From: Azotosporobacter soli
Lineage (GTDB): Bacteria > Bacillota > Negativicutes > SG130
Assembly (NCBI RefSeq): GCF_030542965.1
Contig: NZ_JAUAOA010000007.1
Span: 1 to 64,000 of the forward strand
Direction: 5' to 3'
Length of the DNA stretch: 64,000 bases
Made by a program: the position numbers and the translations under genes. Positions within the stretch are counted from its first letter, which is position 1; each line of letters opens with the position of its first letter. Below are positions 2,319 through 32,304 of this stretch, piece by piece. The notes below the pieces were generated by a model. That model was given only the letters and a program-made list of their open reading frames with translations. It did no database searches and was not told the origin of the DNA.

Positions 2319-3860
2319 TTAGCGGCTTTTTTCCAATAGAATTTTGTCATCGACATCCGCTAAGACTTTGGTTTGAATACGCAAGGCATCCGGCAAATGA
2401 GAATACTCTGACTTGCGTATCAGATAGTAGGCTTTCCCCTCTTTGCCGAGCGCCTCCTGCAACTCAGACTCCGTCTTGATTTCAGAGCCATACAGACCGC
2501 TGTAAAAACTGACGCCGGGACGGAGAAATTTAATGACGTAAAGTGAACTTTTTCCATCGTATTGCCGCGTCAGTTCTGTTGCAATGTCTTTACTTGTAAA
2601 CAACGGCGCAGCGATAGGGAACATCACGCCAACCAAAATGATCGCAAAAGCAGTCATCGCAGTTACTTTTACCCCAACAGCCCACGCGTAGTCCTTTCGC
2701 CAGACAAACCACCAGACTGCTGCCATCATCGCAACCAATACGCTGAGTTGCATATAAACGCCGTGTGCAAGCTGCGGCATCTCTTTTAAGCCAAAAAGCA
2801 TGCCGCCCCCCAATAAAACGCTCATGACGGTCAAACCGATAGCCCAACAATAGGGGCGCGGTTTCGGATACTGTTCGCTTAACTGTGCAATATACCAGCC
2901 CACCAAAATTGCTAATGGCGGATACATCGGCAAGATATAAGAAACCAGCTTCGTCTGCGAGACGGAAAAAAACAAAAAGATAAAGCTTGCCCAGATCGTC
3001 AAGAAGAGCATCAATTGCCCTTTTTCACCCCGTGTGTCAATTGCCCGCCATAAAGCCTGCGGCAGCAATGCAATCCACGGAAAAAAACCAAGCACTAATA
3101 CCGGAATATAATAATACCACAGCACCCCTTCCGGATGTTCCGGCGAAGTGAATCGCGTGACATTATGAAATCCGATAAAAGTGTCAATAAATGCATTGCC
3201 ATGCATTTTATACATAAACCAATACCAGGGCAGCGCGACAATGGAATACACCAGCATGCCGCTACCCAATTTCATGCGTAAAAGCAAGCCAAATTCACGT
3301 GACAATAACAAATAACAAGCCAAAATTCCGCCTGGGAACAGCAAACCAATCGGCCCCTTCGCCAACGTCGCCAACCCAGCAAAAAAATAGGCCCAATAAT
3401 AACGTTTATCCCAAAAGCAAAGCAGCGCAAACGTTAAACAGCTGACTAACGTAATATCGGTTACTGCCGCTTTGGCCAAATAGAAATATTCAATGCTGGT
3501 CGCCAATACCAATCCGGAAAAAATCGCCGCACGATCACCAAGCCAGCGCCTGGTAAAAACATAGACCGCTGCTGCAGAAACAACAGCCAACAATGCGGAA
3601 GGAAAGCGCGCCGCAAATTCGTTAACGCCAAATAATTTATACGATCCGGCTACCAACCAATAATAAAGCGGCGGCTTATCGTACCAGTATTCGCCATAGA
3701 TACGAGGCGACATAAATTCATTGTATTGGAACATTTCCTTTGGCGTCTCCGCATAAACAGGTTCATCCGGATCCAACAAGGGTATTGCGCCTAAGTTGAA
3801 AAAATTGATAACCACCGACAACAAGATGACCAATAACATTCCTTTATCAAACCTGATCAC
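2319..3860 (-). CDS. ArnT/GT39-like membrane glycosyltransferase, copy 1
   Basis: 513 residues, paralogous to the following gene across its whole length. The loop D30-P-D-E33 with VYAETPKEMF and the downstream YDKPPLYYWL (60-69) match the ArnT active-site loop. Multiple membrane helices fill the first 420 residues and a small periplasmic tail ends the protein. The GTG start at 3860 has ggaggg 8 nt upstream. It sits 15 bp after the epimerase gene, in one operon with it. A role in modifying lipid A, core sugar or another envelope glycan is inferred from the family; the specificity is unknown. Confidence 0.87.
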   Translation of the reverse strand: MIRFDKGMLLVILLSVVINFFNLGAIPLLDPDEPVYAETPKEMFQYNEFMSPRIYGEYWYDKPPLYYWLVAGSYKLFGVNEFAARFPSALLAVVSAAAVYVFTRRWLGDRAAIFSGLVLATSIEYFYLAKAAVTDITLVSCLTFALLCFWDKRYYWAYFFAGLATLAKGPIGLLFPGGILACYLLLSREFGLLLRMKLGSGMLVYSIVALPWYWFMYKMHGNAFIDTFIGFHNVTRFTSPEHPEGVLWYYYIPVLVLGFFPWIALLPQALWRAIDTRGEKGQLMLFLTIWASFIFLFFSVSQTKLVSYILPMYPPLAILVGWYIAQLSEQYPKPRPYCWAIGLTVMSVLLGGGMLFGLKEMPQLAHGVYMQLSVLVAMMAAVWWFVWRKDYAWAVGVKVTAMTAFAIILVGVMFPIAAPLFTSKDIATELTRQYDGKSSLYVIKFLRPGVSFYSGLYGSEIKTESELQEALGKEGKAYYLIRKSEYSHLPDALRIQTKVLADVDDKILLEKSR

Positions 3861-3875
3861 GCTGTAAGCCCTCCA

Positions 3876-4796
3876 TTATCCTTTTCCCGCCAACGCGGCA
3901 TATGTTTTGGCCAGCCCTTCAGCCAATGTTGTTTTTGGTTGCCAAGACAACGCATCTTTGGCAGCCGCATGTGAAAGACAGGAACGATAAATATCTCCTT
4001 CACGAATCGCACAATATTCTCGTGTTGCTGCAACACCGGAGACGCTCTCCATTTGCGCAAGCAACTCATTCACGCTGACTTCGCTTTGTGTGCTTATATT
4101 ATAGATGCCGTGTCCGACTGCAGTATTCAATCCCAGCCAGTTTGCTTCAGCAACATCGCCAACATAAATGAAATCGCGCGTTTGGCTACCGTCGCCAAAT
4201 ATTTTAAGCGCTTCGTTCTCGGCTAACTTACGTGAAAAGATGCTTACAACGCCGCCTTCCCCGCTGTCGCCCTGCCGTTCACCATATACATTTGCGTAAC
4301 GAAAGATGATGGTCTCCATGCCATAGCATTGATGATATAACGCCAGATAGCGCTCGCCAACTAATTTGCTTAGGCCATAAAAGGAGGCGGGTTCGGTCCT
4401 GGCCGTTTCCAATACGGGCAATTCTCCGACATCGCCGTAAACGGCTGCCGTCGACGGGAAGAGAACGCGCCGGACACCGCCTAAACGGCAGGCTTCCAAT
4501 ACATTGACCAATCCCATAACATTGACGCTGCAATCTTCATCCGGGTACTGCAACGATAGGGGAACTTTCGTCTGTGCTGCCAGATGAATCAGCGCATCAA
4601 ACTTACCGTTCGCAACCACGCCACGCAACGCCGCATCGCGGATATCCATTTCAACCAACTTCACTTCTTCCGGCAGATTATCACGCGATCCGGTACTCAA
4701 ATCATCAACAACAACAATCTCACACTTTTCCCTCAACAATCGTTCTACAATATGTGAACCAATGAATCCGGCTCCGCCCGTCACTAATACCTTCAC
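3876..4796 (-). CDS. NAD-dependent sugar-nucleotide epimerase/dehydratase
   Basis: 306-residue extended short-chain dehydrogenase. The Rossmann motif GGAGFIG is at residues 7-13, the NAD-ribose-binding DDLSTG at 31-36, and the catalytic Y140-x3-K144 in FYGLSKLVGERY, with the S-T pair in FPSTAAVYG (113-121). Closest in layout to UDP-glucose 4-epimerase-like proteins, but related decarboxylases and dehydratases cannot be excluded. The GTG start at 4796 follows ggagg by about 8 nt. It lies between the deacetylase and two membrane glycosyltransferases, so it probably makes the nucleotide sugar they ultimately use. Confidence 0.85.
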   Translation of the reverse strand: MKVLVTGGAGFIGSHIVERLLREKCEIVVVDDLSTGSRDNLPEEVKLVEMDIRDAALRGVVANGKFDALIHLAAQTKVPLSLQYPDEDCSVNVMGLVNVLEACRLGGVRRVLFPSTAAVYGDVGELPVLETARTEPASFYGLSKLVGERYLALYHQCYGMETIIFRYANVYGERQGDSGEGGVVSIFSRKLAENEALKIFGDGSQTRDFIYVGDVAEANWLGLNTAVGHGIYNISTQSEVSVNELLAQMESVSGVAATREYCAIREGDIYRSCLSHAAAKDALSWQPKTTLAEGLAKTYAALAGKG

Positions 4797-10080: not shown

Positions 10081-13000
10081 TTATTCTTGACCTTGTTCAA
10101 GTATTTTTTTGCTTTTTCCTCGATAGCGGCTCCGCCAATTTTGCAGATTGTCCATAAAGATATACATTTGCGGCACGACAATCAACGTCAAAATAGTAGA
10201 GGTGATCAACCCGCCGACGACGACAACCCCCATTGACGATCGCAATTCCGCTCCTGCGCCCCAGCCGAATGCAACTGGCAACATACCAAGTACCATCGCA
10301 GCGGTCGTCATCAATATTGGTCTGAGACGCACCGTTCCAGCTTCGAGCAGCGCCTCTTCTCTAGAGAGCCCATCACGTTCCCGCAGCGTATTTGCATAAT
10401 CCACCAGCAATATAGCATTTTTCGCCACCAAGCCCATCAACATGATGATACCGATCAAGCTCATAATGTTAACGGTTTTGGCGCTGATCAACAAGCCTAA
10501 AATCGCCCCGATCATCGCAAACGGCAACGACAGCATAATCGTCAACGGATGAATAAAGCTTTCAAACTGCGCTGCCAGCACCATATAAATTAGGATAACC
10601 GCAATTAACAGTGCACGTCCGATTTCCTTGAAGGAGTCGTTCATGCTGCGCGTCTGCCCGACGAACTTGTAATGGTAGCCAAACGGGATATTCATCTGCG
10701 CAATTTCATTTTGCGCCGCCGTGATGATTTCGCCAGCGGAAACGCCAACATTATTGGCATATACGATAATTTCACGTTGACGATCTTCACGATCGATCTG
10801 GGTCGGTCCAGATGTGAATTTAACTTGCGCAATATCGCCTATTCGAACCTGTCCGCCAAATTTACTGGTCACGCGGATATTGGCGACATCGTCCGGTTTA
10901 GTTCGCAGCTCATCCTTGAGCCGTACCCGAATATCATAATCCTTATCACCAACCCGGTAACGGTTTCCCGTAGTGTTGCCGGCAAACGCAGTTTGCACAA
11001 TCGCGCCTACGGAATCGACGTTGACTCCCGCCTGCCCTGCTTTCATCCGATCGACAACGACCTGAACCTCCGGTTGATAATCGCTGGCCGACGTATCGAC
11101 GTCGGCAGAACCTGGAATCTGGCGCAAGCGTTCAGCAAGTTCTTGCGATAGTTGCTTCAATACGCTCATGTCACTGCCCTGAAAACCGACTTGAACGGCC
11201 CGGTTATCGCCGCGCCCGCCTGAAGTGGATGCCGCAACGACCGAAATTTTCATGCCGGTATAATTACGAAACTTCATTCGCAAGGCATCCATGATTTCCA
11301 TCATCGTCCGGTCACGTTGATCGATGTCTTTTAGTTTTACCCCAATCATCGCCTTATTGACCGGATTGCGTGAATAGCCGATATTGAGAAAAGCCGCCCG
11401 TTTTTCCGGCAAAGCCAGTACCTCTTGCTCGACCGGTTTTGCCAACTCTTGCATTTTCTCAATGGATGTTCCCGGCGGCGCCGTCATAAAAATATTGAAT
11501 TCTCCCGAATCATAGGTTGGTTGAAATTCAAAACCTAAGAGCGGAATGAAAAAGACATTCACGACAAGCGAAAGAACGGCCACGCCGACAATGAGCCACG
11601 GATGATGCAGCGCCCACTGCAAAAACTGCCGATACGCATCGCGAATAAATAAAAAGCCAGCTTCCCACTTGTCGAGCCCTCGCTCAATAAAACGATTAAA
11701 TGCAGCAATTACAGTGGGCCGTTTTGGCGGCTCTTCATCGTGCGGCCTTAGCCAACGCGCCGACAACATGGGCGCGAGCGTCAACGCAACAAAAAGCGAG
11801 AAGGCCACCGCAAAGGCCACCGTCAGGCCAAACTGACGAAAAAACATGCCGATAATTTCTCCCATTGAACCAACCGGCACAAAAACGGCCAGAATCGACA
11901 ATGTCGTCGCCAATACAGCCAGCGAAATTTCCACAGTGCCAGAAAACGCACCGTCCGCCGGCGAAGCGCCCTCCTCAATATGGCGATGGATATTTTCTAC
12001 AACGACAATCGCATCGTCAATCAATATTCCGACCGCCAGACTTAAGCCCATCAAAGACATGTTGTTCAAGGTAAAGCCGCCGACCTTCATCAGGCTAAAC
12101 GTCGCGATAACGGATGTCGGAATCGCCAACGCGCCAATTAAGGTCGCCCGTGTATCACGCAAAAACAAGAAAACAATAACAACAGCCAAGAAACCGCCAA
12201 TAATCAAAGAATTGGCCACATCTTCCACATTGCTCTTGATATATAGCGAACCGTCACGAACAATCGTTACCTTGACGTCTTTGGGAAGTTCTTTTTGGAT
12301 CTTGTCCATTTCGGCCTTAACGGCATCGGCAACCGCAACCGTATTCGTACCGGATTGCTTTTGTACGGATACCACGACGGAAGGAGTACCATCCGTGCGT
12401 GCGTAAGTACGTTCTTCCGAAAATGAATCTTTGACTTCCGCCACGTCCGTCAAATAAAGGACTCGATTGTTTTGATTCGCAACTGCAATCGTACCGATTT
12501 CTTCAACCGTCTTATATTGTCCCAGCGTGCGAACAATCATCTCAAACCCTTTTTCCTTAACGTAGCCGCCGGGAACATTGGCATTTGCGCTGTTAACCGC
12601 CGAAAGGATTTGATCCATCGTCAGTCCATAAGCATCCAGTTTACGCGGATCGATTCGCACCTGAATTTCACGGTCACTACCGCCGTTAATTCCGACATCG
12701 CCGACGCCATCGATTTGTTGCAACCTCTCTTTTATGACATCATTGGCCATCTTGCGGATTTCACCGCGCGGTCGCTGATCTGACGCCAAACTGAAATAAA
12801 CAACGGAGGAAGCCGTAATGTCATAGCGCTGCGTCACCGGCTCATCAATCTGGTCCGGTAAAGTGCGACGTACACCGCCTACTTTTTCACGCACGTCAGC
12901 CGCCGCCATACGAGGATCGACGCCGAGTATGAATTCAATCGTAACCTGAGAAACGCCTTCCTTCGACAAGGACGTGATCGTCTTGATGCCGGCGACGGAA

Positions 13001-27071: not shown

Positions 27072-27911
27072 TCATTCTTTTTCTTCCATTGCCTTGCGCA
27101 TTGCAGCACGACAATCCGCTCTTCCAGTCCAAAGTGCAAACGCCAATGCCCCTTGTTCAATCAACATGCCCGCGCCATTTAGAACGCGCTGCCCACGCTC
27201 CCGGCCGTAACGTAAAAACGGTGTTTCTTTAGGATTATAAATTAAATCATAAAGCATCGCGTCGGTAGCGATTACGCTCCAATCGAGAGGCAAAATTTGT
27301 TCGGCTTGGCCATGCATCCCGACCGGCGTCGAGTTGATAATGATGTTCGCTTGCTCACTAACTTCAGCAAATTTTTTTTCTTCCCAGCCGCAAGCTGCCA
27401 CTTTCACTAAAGGAAAAAGCTGCGCCAGTTCGACCGCTTTATCGCGTCGCCGCGCCGCTATTGTCACATTAGCGCCAACACCAAGCATGCCTGCAACAAC
27501 CGCGCGTGCTGCGCCGCCTGCACCGAGCAGCAGCACGTTCGCTCCGTTTGCTTCAACGCCAAACGCTGCCAGCGATCCCATAAACCCGCCGACATCGGTA
27601 TTATAGCCGATTGAGCGCCCTTCTTCAAACACGATGGTATTCACCGCTCCAGCCAAACGAGCCGATTCATCCAGTTGCGTCAAATGTTGCATCACAGCAA
27701 CCTTGTGCGGTATCGTCACATTGACGCCGCGAAATCCCATCTGTGGCAGCGCCGCAATCACACTTGCTAATGCATCCGCCTGAACCGGTAAAGGCACATA
27801 TGCATAATCCAGATCTAATTCTCTAAACGCGGCATTATGCATCTGCGGCGAAAAAGAATGTCCTATAGGCCAACCGATAATGCCCGTCAATCGAGTCGTT
27901 CCTTTAATCAT
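27072..27911 (-). CDS. aroE: Shikimate dehydrogenase AroE
   Basis: 279 residues. Shikimate-binding GWPIGHSFSPQMHN is near the N-terminus, NVTIPHKV with the catalytic Lys at about 66, the NADP motif GAGGAARAV, and NSTPVGMHG downstream. Reduces 3-dehydroshikimate. It overlaps yqeG by 8 bp. Separated from aroC-aroK-aroB by the whole pilus operon. Confidence 0.94.
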   Translation of the reverse strand: MIKGTTRLTGIIGWPIGHSFSPQMHNAAFRELDLDYAYVPLPVQADALASVIAALPQMGFRGVNVTIPHKVAVMQHLTQLDESARLAGAVNTIVFEEGRSIGYNTDVGGFMGSLAAFGVEANGANVLLLGAGGAARAVVAGMLGVGANVTIAARRRDKAVELAQLFPLVKVAACGWEEKKFAEVSEQANIIINSTPVGMHGQAEQILPLDWSVIATDAMLYDLIYNPKETPFLRYGRERGQRVLNGAGMLIEQGALAFALWTGRADCRAAMRKAMEEKE

Positions 27912-28476
27912 CTGTCCTTCCCCTTTCCGGCGGCAGCATTCCCCGCACCGCTAAACGCCGCAGCACAAACCGTTCCAAACAACGTGTAATCTTTGTCCCG
28001 GCGAATTCGCGCGCCGCAATGGGTCTGACCCATATCGTATGCATGCCAAGGCGATTGCCGCCCAACATATCCGTAAACAACTGATCGCCAATCACGGCAA
28101 TCGCCGCAAGTGGCAGGCGCATCGCCGCTGCAACGCTGCGAAATCCTTTGGAGCTCGGCTTATACGCACGACAGGCATAGGGCGCGTTCAGCGGTTTCGC
28201 AACCATCGCCACCCGTTTGCGTTGGTTATTGGAGACCATCCCCAGCTCAAACCCCTGCGCTTGCAACTGTTGCAGCCATATTTTCACCTTTTCTGGAACC
28301 ACTTCACTATCCCATGGCAACAGCGTATTATCCAGATCAAGAATTAAGCCCCTAAGGCCCCGTTGCCACAACTCTTGCGGACAAATATCGGTCACACAGC
28401 GATATCGCTCATTCGGTGTAATGAGTTTATAAAAAGAGCACCTTCTTTTTTCTTTACGCAGCAGCTCAAATAGCAT
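27904..28476 (-). CDS. YqeG-family HAD phosphatase
   Basis: 190 residues. HAD motif I DLDNTLLPWD, motif II VSNNQ, motif III Lys in YKPSSKGF and motif IV GDQLFTD are present, matching YqeG (HAD-IIIA). A phosphatidylglycerophosphate phosphatase role is known for some relatives; here unproven. The ATG at 28476 overlaps the sseB-like stop as TGATG, so it is coupled; an upstream in-frame ATG at 28494 is less likely. Confidence 0.88.
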   Translation of the reverse strand: MLFELLRKEKRRCSFYKLITPNERYRCVTDICPQELWQRGLRGLILDLDNTLLPWDSEVVPEKVKIWLQQLQAQGFELGMVSNNQRKRVAMVAKPLNAPYACRAYKPSSKGFRSVAAAMRLPLAAIAVIGDQLFTDMLGGNRLGMHTIWVRPIAAREFAGTKITRCLERFVLRRLAVRGMLPPERGRTDD

Positions 28477-29168
28477 CAAAAAATGCCCAGCCACTTTTTC
28501 TTATAAAAAGGTTCCACCGCTTCCGTAATGCGGTCGGCCAGCTCCGACGATCCGGCATGAACCAGCTCAAACGGCGTTTTTTGCCCGATGGCAGCTTTGA
28601 TTAACCAATCCGCCTTGCCGCGTATTTCCTCATACTCATATTCATCACAAGAAATGGCGACGGCCAAACGACCGTCCTTCATTTGCGCCAGATACGCTTT
28701 TTTCACTCGTGCGTCTTTTTTAAAACAAGTTGCAAGTTCCTCCTCTATGGCCTGCGGATCAACAGAGTTCGCTTCTTCAGCCTGCAACTGAATATTCATT
28801 CGTTGCGCGCCTTGCAGCAAAGAGGCAATTGCATCCGGTGGGAATTCACAGCCGCCTTCCGTCGTCGCATCAAGCATGACATAACTTCCATTGACAATCG
28901 CCAATAAGTCAAGACAAGAAATCGTCATATAGGGTGTATCCTCTTTCACCGAAGCCAGCATACACTCAAGGCTCGAATATATAGGCACCACCGGCGTACC
29001 GTCCTCCTTTTCCCAGGTTGCAAAAGCAATCTTTGCATCCCCCTGCGTCGACTGTTCGCGCCCATCCGTAATGACGAACACCGTCGTCTGGCGCAATGGT
29101 TCATACCACTGCGTCACAGCGGCGGGGTCGTTTATCGCAGTCTCCAGCAATTCTTTTAACGTATTCAT
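28476..29168 (-). CDS. SseB-like protein
   Basis: 230 residues: N-terminal SseB domain (about 8-115; VFVITDGREQ, PVVPIYSSLE) and a C-terminal SseB_C-like domain (120-230; VKKAYLAQMKDGRLAVAI, ELVHAGSSELADRI). SseB proteins are linked to serine sensitivity in E. coli, but the molecular function is not established. Cytoplasmic, no signal peptide. First gene before yqeG and aroE. Confidence 0.75.
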   Translation of the reverse strand: MNTLKELLETAINDPAAVTQWYEPLRQTTVFVITDGREQSTQGDAKIAFATWEKEDGTPVVPIYSSLECMLASVKEDTPYMTISCLDLLAIVNGSYVMLDATTEGGCEFPPDAIASLLQGAQRMNIQLQAEEANSVDPQAIEEELATCFKKDARVKKAYLAQMKDGRLAVAISCDEYEYEEIRGKADWLIKAAIGQKTPFELVHAGSSELADRITEAVEPFYKKKWLGIF

Positions 29169-29329: not shown

Positions 29330-29569
29330 TTATGATAGCAAACCGTAATATTGATCTTGCAAGTCAGAGAATTCTTCATATTGCTGCTCGGCAAGTTCCA
29401 ACCAAACAATACTGAATTCACAGGAACCAGGAGGAAAACAAAACCAACGTCCATATGGATGCTCAATACTGCACAACCACTCGACAAAACCTTGTGCCAA
29501 TGTCGCACTAAAGTGATGGGTTCCGTAGACGATACCGACTCCGGACTCGACCGACACTTGCGCGCCCAT
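29330..29569 (-). CDS. Small protein of unknown function
   Basis: 79 residues, rich in aromatic residues (GRWFCFPPGSCEFSIVWLELAEQQYEEF), with two cysteines. Family not recognised. Support for a real gene: an excellent aaaggaggg site 6 nt before the ATG and a clean terminator after the stop. No signal peptide or membrane helix. It sits next to the decayed comM copy, in a part of the window with more turnover than elsewhere. Confidence 0.7.
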   Translation of the reverse strand: MGAQVSVESGVGIVYGTHHFSATLAQGFVEWLCSIEHPYGRWFCFPPGSCEFSIVWLELAEQQYEEFSDLQDQYYGLLS

Positions 29570-29621: not shown

Positions 29622-29746
29622 CACTTCCCTGCAAAAAAACCTAGCAGAAGCATGACAAATGCCTGACACTTTCGCTTTGATTAATTCATACGAATCGCTT
29701 TAAAACCGCAAGCGGAATTTTAAAACGATCTCCATTTTTATTAGCT

Positions 29747-30036
29747 CTAGATATCCTTCAAACTCATCCGCAACTCACGCTGCGCTGCATCGATGGTTTC
29801 CGTTCCGGCCACCAGATCGGTGATAGTATTGCCGACTTTCATCAGGCGATAGAGCATCGTAGCCAAAGCATATCACTCCGATTGGGAGGTTAACCCGACT
29901 CGGAAGTACCCCTGCTATTTTCTTCACGTAGCTCCGCTGTTACAAATACCTAGACAGGCAGATCCTAGGTAGCGATTTTAGCAACACACGCGGGAGTATG
30001 ACATCTCTGCATTTATGCGCGAAATTATCACCACCC
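29747..30036 (-). pseudogene. Decayed partial copy of the comM 3' half
   Basis: Two pieces match the intact comM gene nearby in the same order and strand. 29747-29872 encodes YRLMKVGNTITDL...GTETIDAAQ...SLKDI, the counterpart of the ComM C-terminus (DRLLKVGRTIADLAGTEMIDEAQ...SLKDV), with a frameshift after GYD. About 29915-30036 resembles the part of comM coding for KKISGPL and the upstream INATISRVNAS-like segment. An internal stretch of roughly 200-250 bp is missing between the pieces. The rest of 29622-29746 and 30037-30112 holds nothing I can assign. Confidence 0.75.
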
Positions 30037-30112
30037 CAACTTCGGGCCGATTACACTTGCTCGCGTTTAGGTTATTCTTTCTTAATAGCATTTATCTCAT
30101 TTACCTCAACTG

Positions 30113-30652
30113 TTAATCTATCTTTTTAAGTTCTGCATCCTTATCTTTACTGAAAATCTCCTTCCACTCCATTAATAAATCTTCTTGAATTTGCCATTCA
30201 ATAGGCGCGCGTTCTCTAAATATAAAACAAACAGTAACCTTTTTTGCTGAAGCTATCTTTTTTAATTCCCTATCCGACTTTGTTTCATAATATATATGTG
30301 AGGAATATTTAGGAGAACCATTCTTGTTTTTTGTTGTATTTTCAGATATGCTATACGCCGTTAATTGTAACGGTTTCTCACTATCATCAACATATATTCC
30401 TGTTTTAGGTAATAAGCCGCAAGAATTTTCAATACTTGTTAAATCGAATCGTAGATAACAATATGTTTTATACCCATCTTGAAAATCGATTGTTGCGTAT
30501 GTATTAACCCTAATATCCTTTACCTGGTTATCATTCGATGCAGAATAAACTACTTGATGACCTTTTATATTTATTTCTTTAGATACTCCGGCAAAAACCG
30601 ATGACGAATTTAACAAACACATTAAAACAGTGCCCAGTAATACTTTTTTCAT
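30113..30652 (-). CDS. AT-rich gene for a secreted protein of unknown function
   Basis: 179 residues. A clear Sec signal peptide ends VFA at residue 21, so it is exported to the periplasm or beyond. The mature part is beta-rich with three cysteines (65, 78, 142) and a charged helical tail ending KDKDAELKKID. Family not recognised. Codon use and base composition are much more AT-rich than its neighbours, and it sits between the decayed and intact copies of comM, both signs of horizontal acquisition. Own sigma-A type promoter upstream. Confidence 0.75.
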   Translation of the reverse strand: MKKVLLGTVLMCLLNSSSVFAGVSKEINIKGHQVVYSASNDNQVKDIRVNTYATIDFQDGYKTYCYLRFDLTSIENSCGLLPKTGIYVDDSEKPLQLTAYSISENTTKNKNGSPKYSSHIYYETKSDRELKKIASAKKVTVCFIFRERAPIEWQIQEDLLMEWKEIFSKDKDAELKKID

Positions 30653-30723
30653 TTTATCAAAACCTTTCTGATATATTTATCACAGTATCTGCCGTAACGT
30701 CTGTCAGAAATCATATGGCGCAG

Positions 30724-30752
30724 ATTAAACCATTCTGCCTTAAATATGTCAC
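30724..30752 (-). promoter_or_regulatory. Sigma-A type promoter of the secreted-protein gene
   Basis: Minus strand -35 GTGACA (30747-30752) and -10 TTTAAT (30724-30729), 17 bp apart, each with one mismatch to consensus. It lies between the comM stop and the gene, leaving a leader of about 65 nt. Confidence 0.5.
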
Positions 30753-30774
30753 CGAACTCCGCTTACTAAACGCC

Positions 30775-32304
30775 TCAACTCCACACATCCTTCAAACTCG
30801 TCCGCAGCTGTATCGCCTCCGCGACCTGCGCTTCGTCGATCATTTCCGTTCCAGCCAAGTCGGCGATCGTCCGGCCTACTTTCAGCAAACGGTCATAGCC
30901 GCGTGCGCTCAAATTCAGACGGTCAAATGCTTGCTTCAGAAGTTCCTGCGCTTCTCCGGTCATTTGACACGTCGCTTTGACGTGCCGATGTCCCATCTGT
31001 CCATTCGCGCTGAGTCCGTATTTTTGCAGTCTCTCCTGTTGCAAAGTGCGTGCCTGCTGCACGCGCAAACGGATAGCCGTCGAAGATTCCGCCGGTTGCT
31101 GCGTAACCATATCCGAATATTCAAGGCGCGGTACACCGATTTGGATGTCGATGCGATCTAAAAGCGGCCCGGATATTTTCTTCACATAACGCCGCCGCTC
31201 CTGCTCACTGCAGGTACATTGACGGCCGGGATCCGTGAAAAATCCGCAGGGGCACGGATTCATCGAACTGATTAATAAAACACGCGCGGGATAGGAAAGC
31301 GACGCATTGACGCGCGAAATCGTCACCGCGCCGTCTTCGAGCGGTTGGCGCAGCACTTCGAGCACACTTTTCGGAAACTCCGGCAGTTCATCGAGAAACA
31401 GTACACCCTGATGGCTTAATGTGACTTCGCCTGGTTTTGGAATGCTGCCGCCGCCAGCCATTCCGGCGCTCGAGATTGTATGATGCGGACTGCGAAACGG
31501 ACGAACGCGCACCAAGCCGCCGCGCGATCCCGGCAGCAGTCCGGCGACGCTGTATATCTTCGTCACTTCGAGCGCTTCCGGATCCGACAGCAGTGGCAGA
31601 ATCGACGGCACGCGCCGGGCGAGCATCGTCTTGCCGGATCCAGGCGGCCCGACCATCAGCAGATTATGTCCACCGGCTGCAGCAATTTCGAGTGCGCGCT
31701 TTGCGGCAAACTGTCCCTGCACTTCGGCAAAATCATCCCATATCAACGAGTTTGGCGCATCATCCGACGAAAAATCAGCCGGTTTTAACAACGTTTCGCC
31801 GCGCAGATGGAATACTAGTTGTTGCAGACTTTCCGGCGTATGAACAGTAATCCCTTTTACCAGATAGGCCTCCGGCCCGTTATCGAGGGCAGTATAAAGG
31901 CGCAGACAACCATGTTCTTTTGCCGCCATCGCCATTGGCAGTGCACCTTTTAGGCCACGCAACTTCCCCTCGAGTGACAATTCGCCAATGAATAAGCTGT
32001 CTTGGCACGACGCATCAGGAATTTGACCGCTCGCAGCCAGGATGCCAAGCGCGATCGGCAGATCCAATCCAGCGCTGTCTTTTTTCAGCTCGGCAGGAGC
32101 CAAGTTCACGGTAATACGCCGAGCTGGAAACTCCAGCCCGGCATTCTTGATTGCAGCGCGCACCCGCTCTTTCGATTCGCGCACCGCCGTATCCGGCAGA
32201 CCGACAATGTCAAAGGCAGGTAATCCATTGCCAATATCGACTTCTACGCTGATAATCATTCCTTGCAAACCAACCGTTGTCGAGCCCAATGTCTGTGAAA
32301 ACAC
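30775..32304 (-). CDS. comM: YifB/ComM-family magnesium-chelatase-like AAA ATPase
   Basis: 509 residues. N-terminal ChlI-like domain (LPAFDIVGLPDTAVRESKERV), AAA core with Walker A GPPGSGKTM and Walker B GVLFLDELPEF, a zinc-type loop NPCPCGFFTDPGRQCTCS, and the C-terminal Mg-chelatase domain. ComM is a hexameric branch-migration helicase that promotes recombination of incoming DNA during transformation. The gene is intact; a broken copy of its 3' half lies about 750 bp downstream. comM is a known insertion site for genomic islands in several bacteria. No dprA beside it. Confidence 0.93.
   Translation of the reverse strand: MFSQTLGSTTVGLQGMIISVEVDIGNGLPAFDIVGLPDTAVRESKERVRAAIKNAGLEFPARRITVNLAPAELKKDSAGLDLPIALGILAASGQIPDASCQDSLFIGELSLEGKLRGLKGALPMAMAAKEHGCLRLYTALDNGPEAYLVKGITVHTPESLQQLVFHLRGETLLKPADFSSDDAPNSLIWDDFAEVQGQFAAKRALEIAAAGGHNLLMVGPPGSGKTMLARRVPSILPLLSDPEALEVTKIYSVAGLLPGSRGGLVRVRPFRSPHHTISSAGMAGGGSIPKPGEVTLSHQGVLFLDELPEFPKSVLEVLRQPLEDGAVTISRVNASLSYPARVLLISSMNPCPCGFFTDPGRQCTCSEQERRRYVKKISGPLLDRIDIQIGVPRLEYSDMVTQQPAESSTAIRLRVQQARTLQQERLQKYGLSANGQMGHRHVKATCQMTGEAQELLKQAFDRLNLSARGYDRLLKVGRTIADLAGTEMIDEAQVAEAIQLRTSLKDVWS

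What the first reader, a model, noticed from the sequence alone, without database searches (positions are those of the whole stretch)
29747..30799. Decayed comM copy and a foreign gene next to intact comM
The C-terminal and middle parts of comM reappear as a frameshifted, deleted copy downstream, in the same order and strand. Between this and the intact gene is an AT-rich gene for a secreted protein. The 13-mer atccttcaaactc near the comM 3' end occurs in both (29753-29765 and 30787-30799). This looks like an element that integrated at comM and restored its 3' end, leaving the old end to decay. comM is a known island insertion site elsewhere.
Basis: partly seen in the sequence, partly recalled or inferred. 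Interest (0 to 1): 0.6.

Follow-up and report, generated by a model that had tools for sequence, protein, structure and literature searches.

The report
Decayed comM fragment beside intact comM
Next to a healthy copy of the DNA-uptake gene comM lies a broken-down duplicate of its last third, separated by one AT-rich foreign-looking gene: an old scar of DNA insertion at a gene already known as a favourite landing site for mobile DNA, with no sign of a working element left.

Summary
Window 29741-30050 (minus strand) is a decayed, deleted, frameshifted copy of comM codons ~320-509, downstream of intact comM (30775-32304). A 31% GC gene for a small exported protein (30113-30652) sits between them. 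The remnant is closer to this genome's own comM than to any of 43 same-class loci, and nearly all changes are in the remnant. Eight same-class loci keep comM 27-68 bp from yqeG (empty site); here the gap is ~2.3 kb.

comM is an insertion hotspot in this class: serine-recombinase elements split it, often at the MNPCPCG codons. But the remnant straddles that site, no integrase is nearby, no att core is visible, and the 13-mer is conserved coding sequence. Another genome (G012) shows a fresher analogue: intact comM, 13.7 kb of hydrogenase genes with no recombinase found, then a second comM 3' part differing almost only synonymously. I favour recombination at comM of DNA carrying a second comM 3' end, with the spare end decaying. 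A lost site-specific element, or a tandem duplication plus later insertion, remain open. An ordinary scar at a known hotspot.

The parts
30775..32304 (-). intact comM (YifB-type Mg chelatase-like AAA ATPase), 509 aa
   Evidence: Pfam Mg_chelatase, ChlI and Mg_chelatase_C far above cut-off; single full copy in the genome
29741..30050 (-). decayed copy of comM codons ~320-509 with internal deletions and frameshifts
30113..30652 (-). AT-rich gene for a 179-aa protein with an apparent signal peptide; sparse Negativicutes-type family, no named family
30104..30111 (.). left copy of an 8-bp direct repeat (CCTCAACT) at the edge of the AT-rich block; weak clue only
   Evidence: chance of such a match ~0.25 by shuffling
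30773..30780 (.). right copy of the 8-bp direct repeat, overlapping the comM stop codon
29753..29765 (-).
   Evidence: family D2
30787..30799 (-).
   Evidence: family D2
29330..29569 (-). 79-aa gene between remnant and SseB; three paralogues elsewhere in the same genome
28476..29168 (-). SseB-like gene, overlapping the yqeG start; no relative in 40 same-class genomes
27904..28494 (-). yqeG (HAD phosphatase), ancestral downstream neighbour of comM
   Evidence: directly next to comM in eight same-class loci

Best explanation
The locus is an old scar of recombination at comM. DNA carrying a second comM 3' end together with a foreign AT-rich gene was joined to the chromosome within comM. One comM stayed complete; the other comM 3' part, cut off at about codon 320, was left downstream, is not translated, and is decaying. 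The most likely way is homologous recombination in comM at one side and illegitimate joining at the other (as in homology-facilitated illegitimate recombination), with no need for an integrase. Shown: the duplicate, its decay, its own-lineage origin, the derived state of the comM-yqeG gap, and the unusual composition of the gene. Inferred: the recombination route, the order of events, and that gene and duplicate arrived together. The remnant has no likely function now; comM keeps its own.
For: Remnant is nearest to own comM (alignment score 113.6, next best of 43 loci 70.6). At 35 differing sites with a class consensus, the host gene carries the consensus at 25, the remnant at 2, neither at 8. 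Empty site in relatives; no convincing own-comM remnant within 5 kb downstream of 43 other intact comM loci. G012 shows the same architecture fresher: intact comM, 13.7 kb of hydrogenase and hyp genes with no recombinase among the ten ORFs scanned, then comM aa 220-506 with 48 synonymous against 2 nonsynonymous codon differences over aa 220-402, homology ending at the stop codon. The two G012 copies therefore diverged as working genes before meeting. In the window the genes on both sides are core genes and no recombinase is among the ORFs in the gap.
Against: No donor lineage is known with the exported-protein gene next to comM. The window remnant is too old to show the synonymous signature (differences 24/20/32% by codon position). 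The C-terminal third of intact comM is not discordant, so an import could only have come from a close relative. The remnant is followed by SseB and the 79-aa gene, which needs at least one further event or older residents.
Confidence: 0.42

Rival explanations
1. A site-specific integrative element (island or phage) integrated in comM, supplied a new 3' end, left the old one to decay, and has since lost everything but one cargo gene.
For: comM is a recurrent recombinase target in this class: comM pieces meet at a core around TGTCCGTG in the MNPCPCG codons in G004 and G005, and G027/G037 halves end at the same codons; a 526-aa and a 595-aa serine recombinase lie at comM junctions of G005 and G029. 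Literature: PMC10083194, PMC4774983, PMC10293859. The mirror case G005 has a comM piece ending at the core (98-nt exact match to the intact copy) about 50 kb from an intact comM.
Against: No integrase remains; the remnant edge (~aa 320) is at no known site and the remnant spans the serine-recombinase site; the comM elements known split the gene and restore nothing; only one cargo gene; the 13-mer is ordinary coding homology.
Confidence: 0.25
2. Partial tandem duplication of the comM 3' third in the own genome, with the AT-rich gene inserted later and independently at the comM stop codon.
For: Remnant is own-lineage. Without the AT-rich block between the 8-bp repeats at 30104 and 30773 the order would be comM, about 55 bp, then the comM remnant: a plain tandem partial duplication.
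Against: An 8-bp match of this kind is expected in about 25% of shuffles. Needs two independent events at one place. The sequence after the comM stop and after the remnant stop is unlike, though decay could hide that.
Confidence: 0.25
3. The remnant is a left-over C-half of a comM once split by a serine-recombinase prophage, with comM later restored from outside.
For: Such splits, and intact comM in genomes that also hold broken halves, occur in the class (G156, G248, G133).
Against: The remnant contains sequence on both sides of the attachment codons (aa ~320-342 and ~361-509), so it cannot be a simple C-half of that kind. A G029-like cut at aa ~280 would fit but was seen once.
Confidence: 0.05

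Closest known systems
comM/YifB (Mg chelatase-like gene) as a target of large serine recombinases (PMC10083194: 12.4% of predicted site-specific LSRs)
   Same: Same gene; in this class several genomes show comM halves meeting at the MNPCPCG codons, with serine recombinases at some junctions
   Different: In the window comM is intact, no recombinase is present, and the remnant spans the attachment codons
Tn6022/AbaR-type and Tsy elements guided by TnsF to the Walker B codons of comM (PMC10293859); MGEs in comM of Aggregatibacter, Acinetobacter and others (PMC4774983)
   Same: Insertion at comM; the window remnant's edge (aa ~320) is near Walker B (aa 302-310)
   Different: Those elements split comM without a second 3' end; no transposase, TnsF or YRec gene recognised here
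Integrative elements that carry a replacement gene 3' end (icd and tRNA type; own knowledge)
   Same: Layout: complete gene, foreign DNA, displaced 3' end
   Different: No integrase, no att core; displaced part of ~190 codons
Homology-facilitated illegitimate recombination (defined in PMC3240628)
   Same: Predicts a complete hybrid gene, foreign DNA, and a truncated second copy without any recombinase gene
   Different: Not observed directly here; donor unknown

Membership tests
Site-specific integrative element in comM with 3'-end restoration | integrase or recombinase gene in or beside the insert | tested here: not met
   ORFs between comM and yqeG: exported protein, 79-aa gene, SseB, none a recombinase; further neighbours match core genes of relatives
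Site-specific integrative element in comM with 3'-end restoration | identical att core at both junctions | tested here: not met
   13-mer is part of 84%-identical coding repeats; 8-bp repeat at the block edges expected by chance in ~25%
Site-specific integrative element in comM with 3'-end restoration | complete gene followed by foreign DNA and a displaced, decaying 3' end of the same gene | tested here: met
Site-specific integrative element in comM with 3'-end restoration | empty site in relatives | tested here: met
   comM-yqeG gap 27-68 bp in L044, L051, L052, L053, L164, L165, L169, L178; same class only, no closer genome held
Serine-recombinase prophage in comM | junction in the MNPCPCG codons (aa 348-354) | tested here: not met
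   remnant holds comM sequence on both sides of those codons
Tn6022/Tsy-type element in comM | TnsF-like protein with transposase or tyrosine recombinase genes in the insert | tested here: not met
   no such gene among the three ORFs of the gap
Recombination of a second comM allele (HFIR-like) | two comM 3' parts whose divergence accumulated under selection in separate lineages | tested here: inconclusive
   met in the analogue G012 (48 synonymous, 2 nonsynonymous codons); window remnant too decayed
Recombination of a second comM allele (HFIR-like) | donor lineage with the cargo gene next to comM | tested here: not met
   only weak relatives of the exported protein in 380 class genomes; their places do not coincide with the comM places listed

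The most novel reading that the evidence does not exclude
In this class comM may be repeatedly broken by mobile DNA and repeatedly regained by recombination with a second comM allele, leaving scars such as this one and those in G012, G156 and G248. That would make comM, a helper of DNA uptake, a gene rescued through the process it serves.
Probability: 0.2. Interest if true: 0.55.

Novelty: new member of a known kind. Interest (0 to 1): 0.27.

Why it matters
By itself it is one more scar at a well known insertion hotspot. It matters modestly because comparison across about 380 genomes of the class shows that broken halves and extra pieces of comM recur there, and that at least one case (G012) carries two comM 3' parts diverged as working alleles. 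This bears on whether cells repair comM by recombination after mobile DNA breaks it, a possibility raised for Acinetobacter in PMC11472951.

Tried and rejected
Prophage C-half origin for the remnant: rejected for the aa 348-353 site because the remnant spans it. Remnant from a distant lineage: rejected. Replacement of the comM 3' third by a divergent allele: no signal. The 13-mer as att core: rejected. Phage, plasmid and viral-contig searches with the exported protein: nothing. Pfam, NCBIfam, PHROGs and PDB for that protein: nothing. Single-sequence structure: mean pLDDT 52.5, too low for a fold search. The genome-contig scan spent on comM returned mostly distant taxa. Phage, plasmid and viral hits of the comM 3' part were mostly unannotated or whole YifB genes and did not help.

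Full report
Observation. The window's comM (30775-32304, minus strand) is complete: 509 aa with the ChlI, Mg_chelatase and C-terminal domains, and the only full copy in the genome. Downstream on the same strand, collinear blocks at 29741-30050 match its 3' third (blastn E 6e-12, 1e-7, 5e-5). The local score lies about 20 standard deviations above dinucleotide shuffles. The blocks cover codons ~320-391 and ~472-509, broken by deletions and frameshifts, and homology stops at the stop codon. A test of the 5' edge finds an extension of 22 nt beyond the anchor and no more, which puts the detectable edge at codon ~320. Between the two copies is a 179-aa reading frame (30113-30652) with an apparent signal peptide and 31% GC, against 55% for comM.

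Which copy is old, and whose. The remnant scores 113.6 against the window's comM and at most 70.6 against 43 same-class loci, so it is an own-lineage copy. Where remnant and gene differ and relatives agree, the gene carries the class consensus at 25 sites and the remnant at 2, with neither at 8. Differences fall on all codon positions (24, 20, 32%). The remnant has drifted without constraint. The C-terminal third of the gene is no more divergent from relatives than expected from its N-terminal part (z -0.16), so a replacement by a distant allele is not seen; one from a close relative cannot be tested.

Empty site. In relatives of the same class the order is rplS-lepB-ylqF-rnhB-flhB-like-yraN-ubiX-comM-yqeG-aroE-pilB-pilT, with comM and yqeG 27-68 bp apart in eight loci. 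In the window about 2.3 kb lie between them: the exported-protein gene, the remnant, a 79-aa gene with three paralogues elsewhere in the genome, and an SseB-like gene with no relative in 40 class genomes. Among 43 other comM loci none shows a convincing own-comM remnant within 5 kb downstream; the few nucleotide hits in L143, L144, L147 and L148 had no support at protein level and I take them as compositional. No genome of the window's own family is held, so the event cannot be dated more closely.

comM as a hotspot. Several class genomes carry split comM. In G004 and G005 the comM pieces meet at a core around TGTCCGTG in the MNPCPCG codons. In G027 and G037 the N-half ends and the C-half begins at those same codons. 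G005 has a 526-aa and G029 a 595-aa serine recombinase at the comM junction, both with Resolvase and Recombinase domains. Published work already names this gene as a major target: 12.4% of predicted site-specific large serine recombinases (PMC10083194), Tn6022 and Tsy through TnsF (PMC10293859), and elements in comM of Aggregatibacter, Acinetobacter and others (PMC4774983). The hotspot is therefore known; the class-level detail is an extension.

Why the window case is not a plain prophage scar. The remnant contains comM sequence on both sides of the serine-recombinase site, so it is not the C-half of such a split. No recombinase is among the genes between comM and yqeG, and the further neighbours are core genes. 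The 13-mer lies inside 84%-identical coding repeats. An 8-bp repeat (AGTTGAGG in gene sense) flanks the AT-rich block and overlaps the comM stop codon, but a match that long is expected in about a quarter of shuffles.

A fresher analogue. G012 has intact comM in its native upstream context, then 13.7 kb holding rubrerythrin-like, cation efflux, NiFe hydrogenase and hyp genes (no recombinase among the ten ORFs scanned; not every small ORF was scanned), then comM aa 220-506 with a frameshift. The two 3' parts are 89% identical in DNA; over aa 220-402 they are 99% identical in protein, with 48 synonymous and 2 nonsynonymous codon differences, and homology ends at the stop codon. These copies diverged as working genes and were brought together later. 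By analogy I favour recombination of a second comM allele with attached DNA for the window too. For the window this is inference: its remnant is too old to carry the signature. The route proposed, homology at one end and illegitimate joining at the other, is a described process (PMC3240628).

The exported protein. It has weak relatives in ten of 380 class genomes, several of them small exported proteins by eye, and none in phages, plasmids or viral contigs. No named family matches and no solved structure. A single-sequence model is of low confidence (mean pLDDT 52.5), so its role stays open.

Assessment. Best reading 0.42, lost site-specific element 0.25, tandem duplication plus later insertion 0.25, prophage C-half 0.05. 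The locus is an ordinary scar at a known hotspot. The wider pattern of broken and regained comM is more interesting than the scar itself, and is only sketched here.

Noticed in passing
L038-L043, L045 (G004, G027, G037, G005): comM halves or pieces end at the MNPCPCG codons, with core around TGTCCGTG; in G027, G037 and G004 the C-half is preceded by GCACGTTTG, suggesting a shared phage arm
   Followed up: partly
L036 (G012 C8:76000-95999): Two comM 3' parts differing almost only synonymously flank 13.7 kb of NiFe hydrogenase and hyp genes in which no recombinase was found
   Followed up: partly
L226 (G156 C7), coordinates 2445-3968 and 10732-12470: Intact comM lies about 8 kb from a broken comM C-half in opposite orientation; a serine-recombinase-like frame sits just before the C-half
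   Followed up: no
G248 C1 and G133 C14: Genomes with an intact comM also hold one or more separate comM N-halves ending at aa ~351, some in pieces; suggests repeated breakage and regain
   Followed up: no
L228 (G320 C115:228000-246000): Two comM C-halves about 10 kb apart, each beside similar phage-like genes, as if a prophage end had been duplicated; G027 also has two C-halves about 10 kb apart
   Followed up: no
window 29330-29569 and G000 C20, C9, C32 (L183-L185): Small 79-aa gene family with four copies in the genome, resembling part of larger proteins in phage-like surroundings in G010 and G036 (weak VgrG3-like C-terminal match)
   Followed up: partly
window 28476-28494: SseB-like gene overlaps the start of yqeG and has no relative in 40 class genomes
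   Followed up: partly
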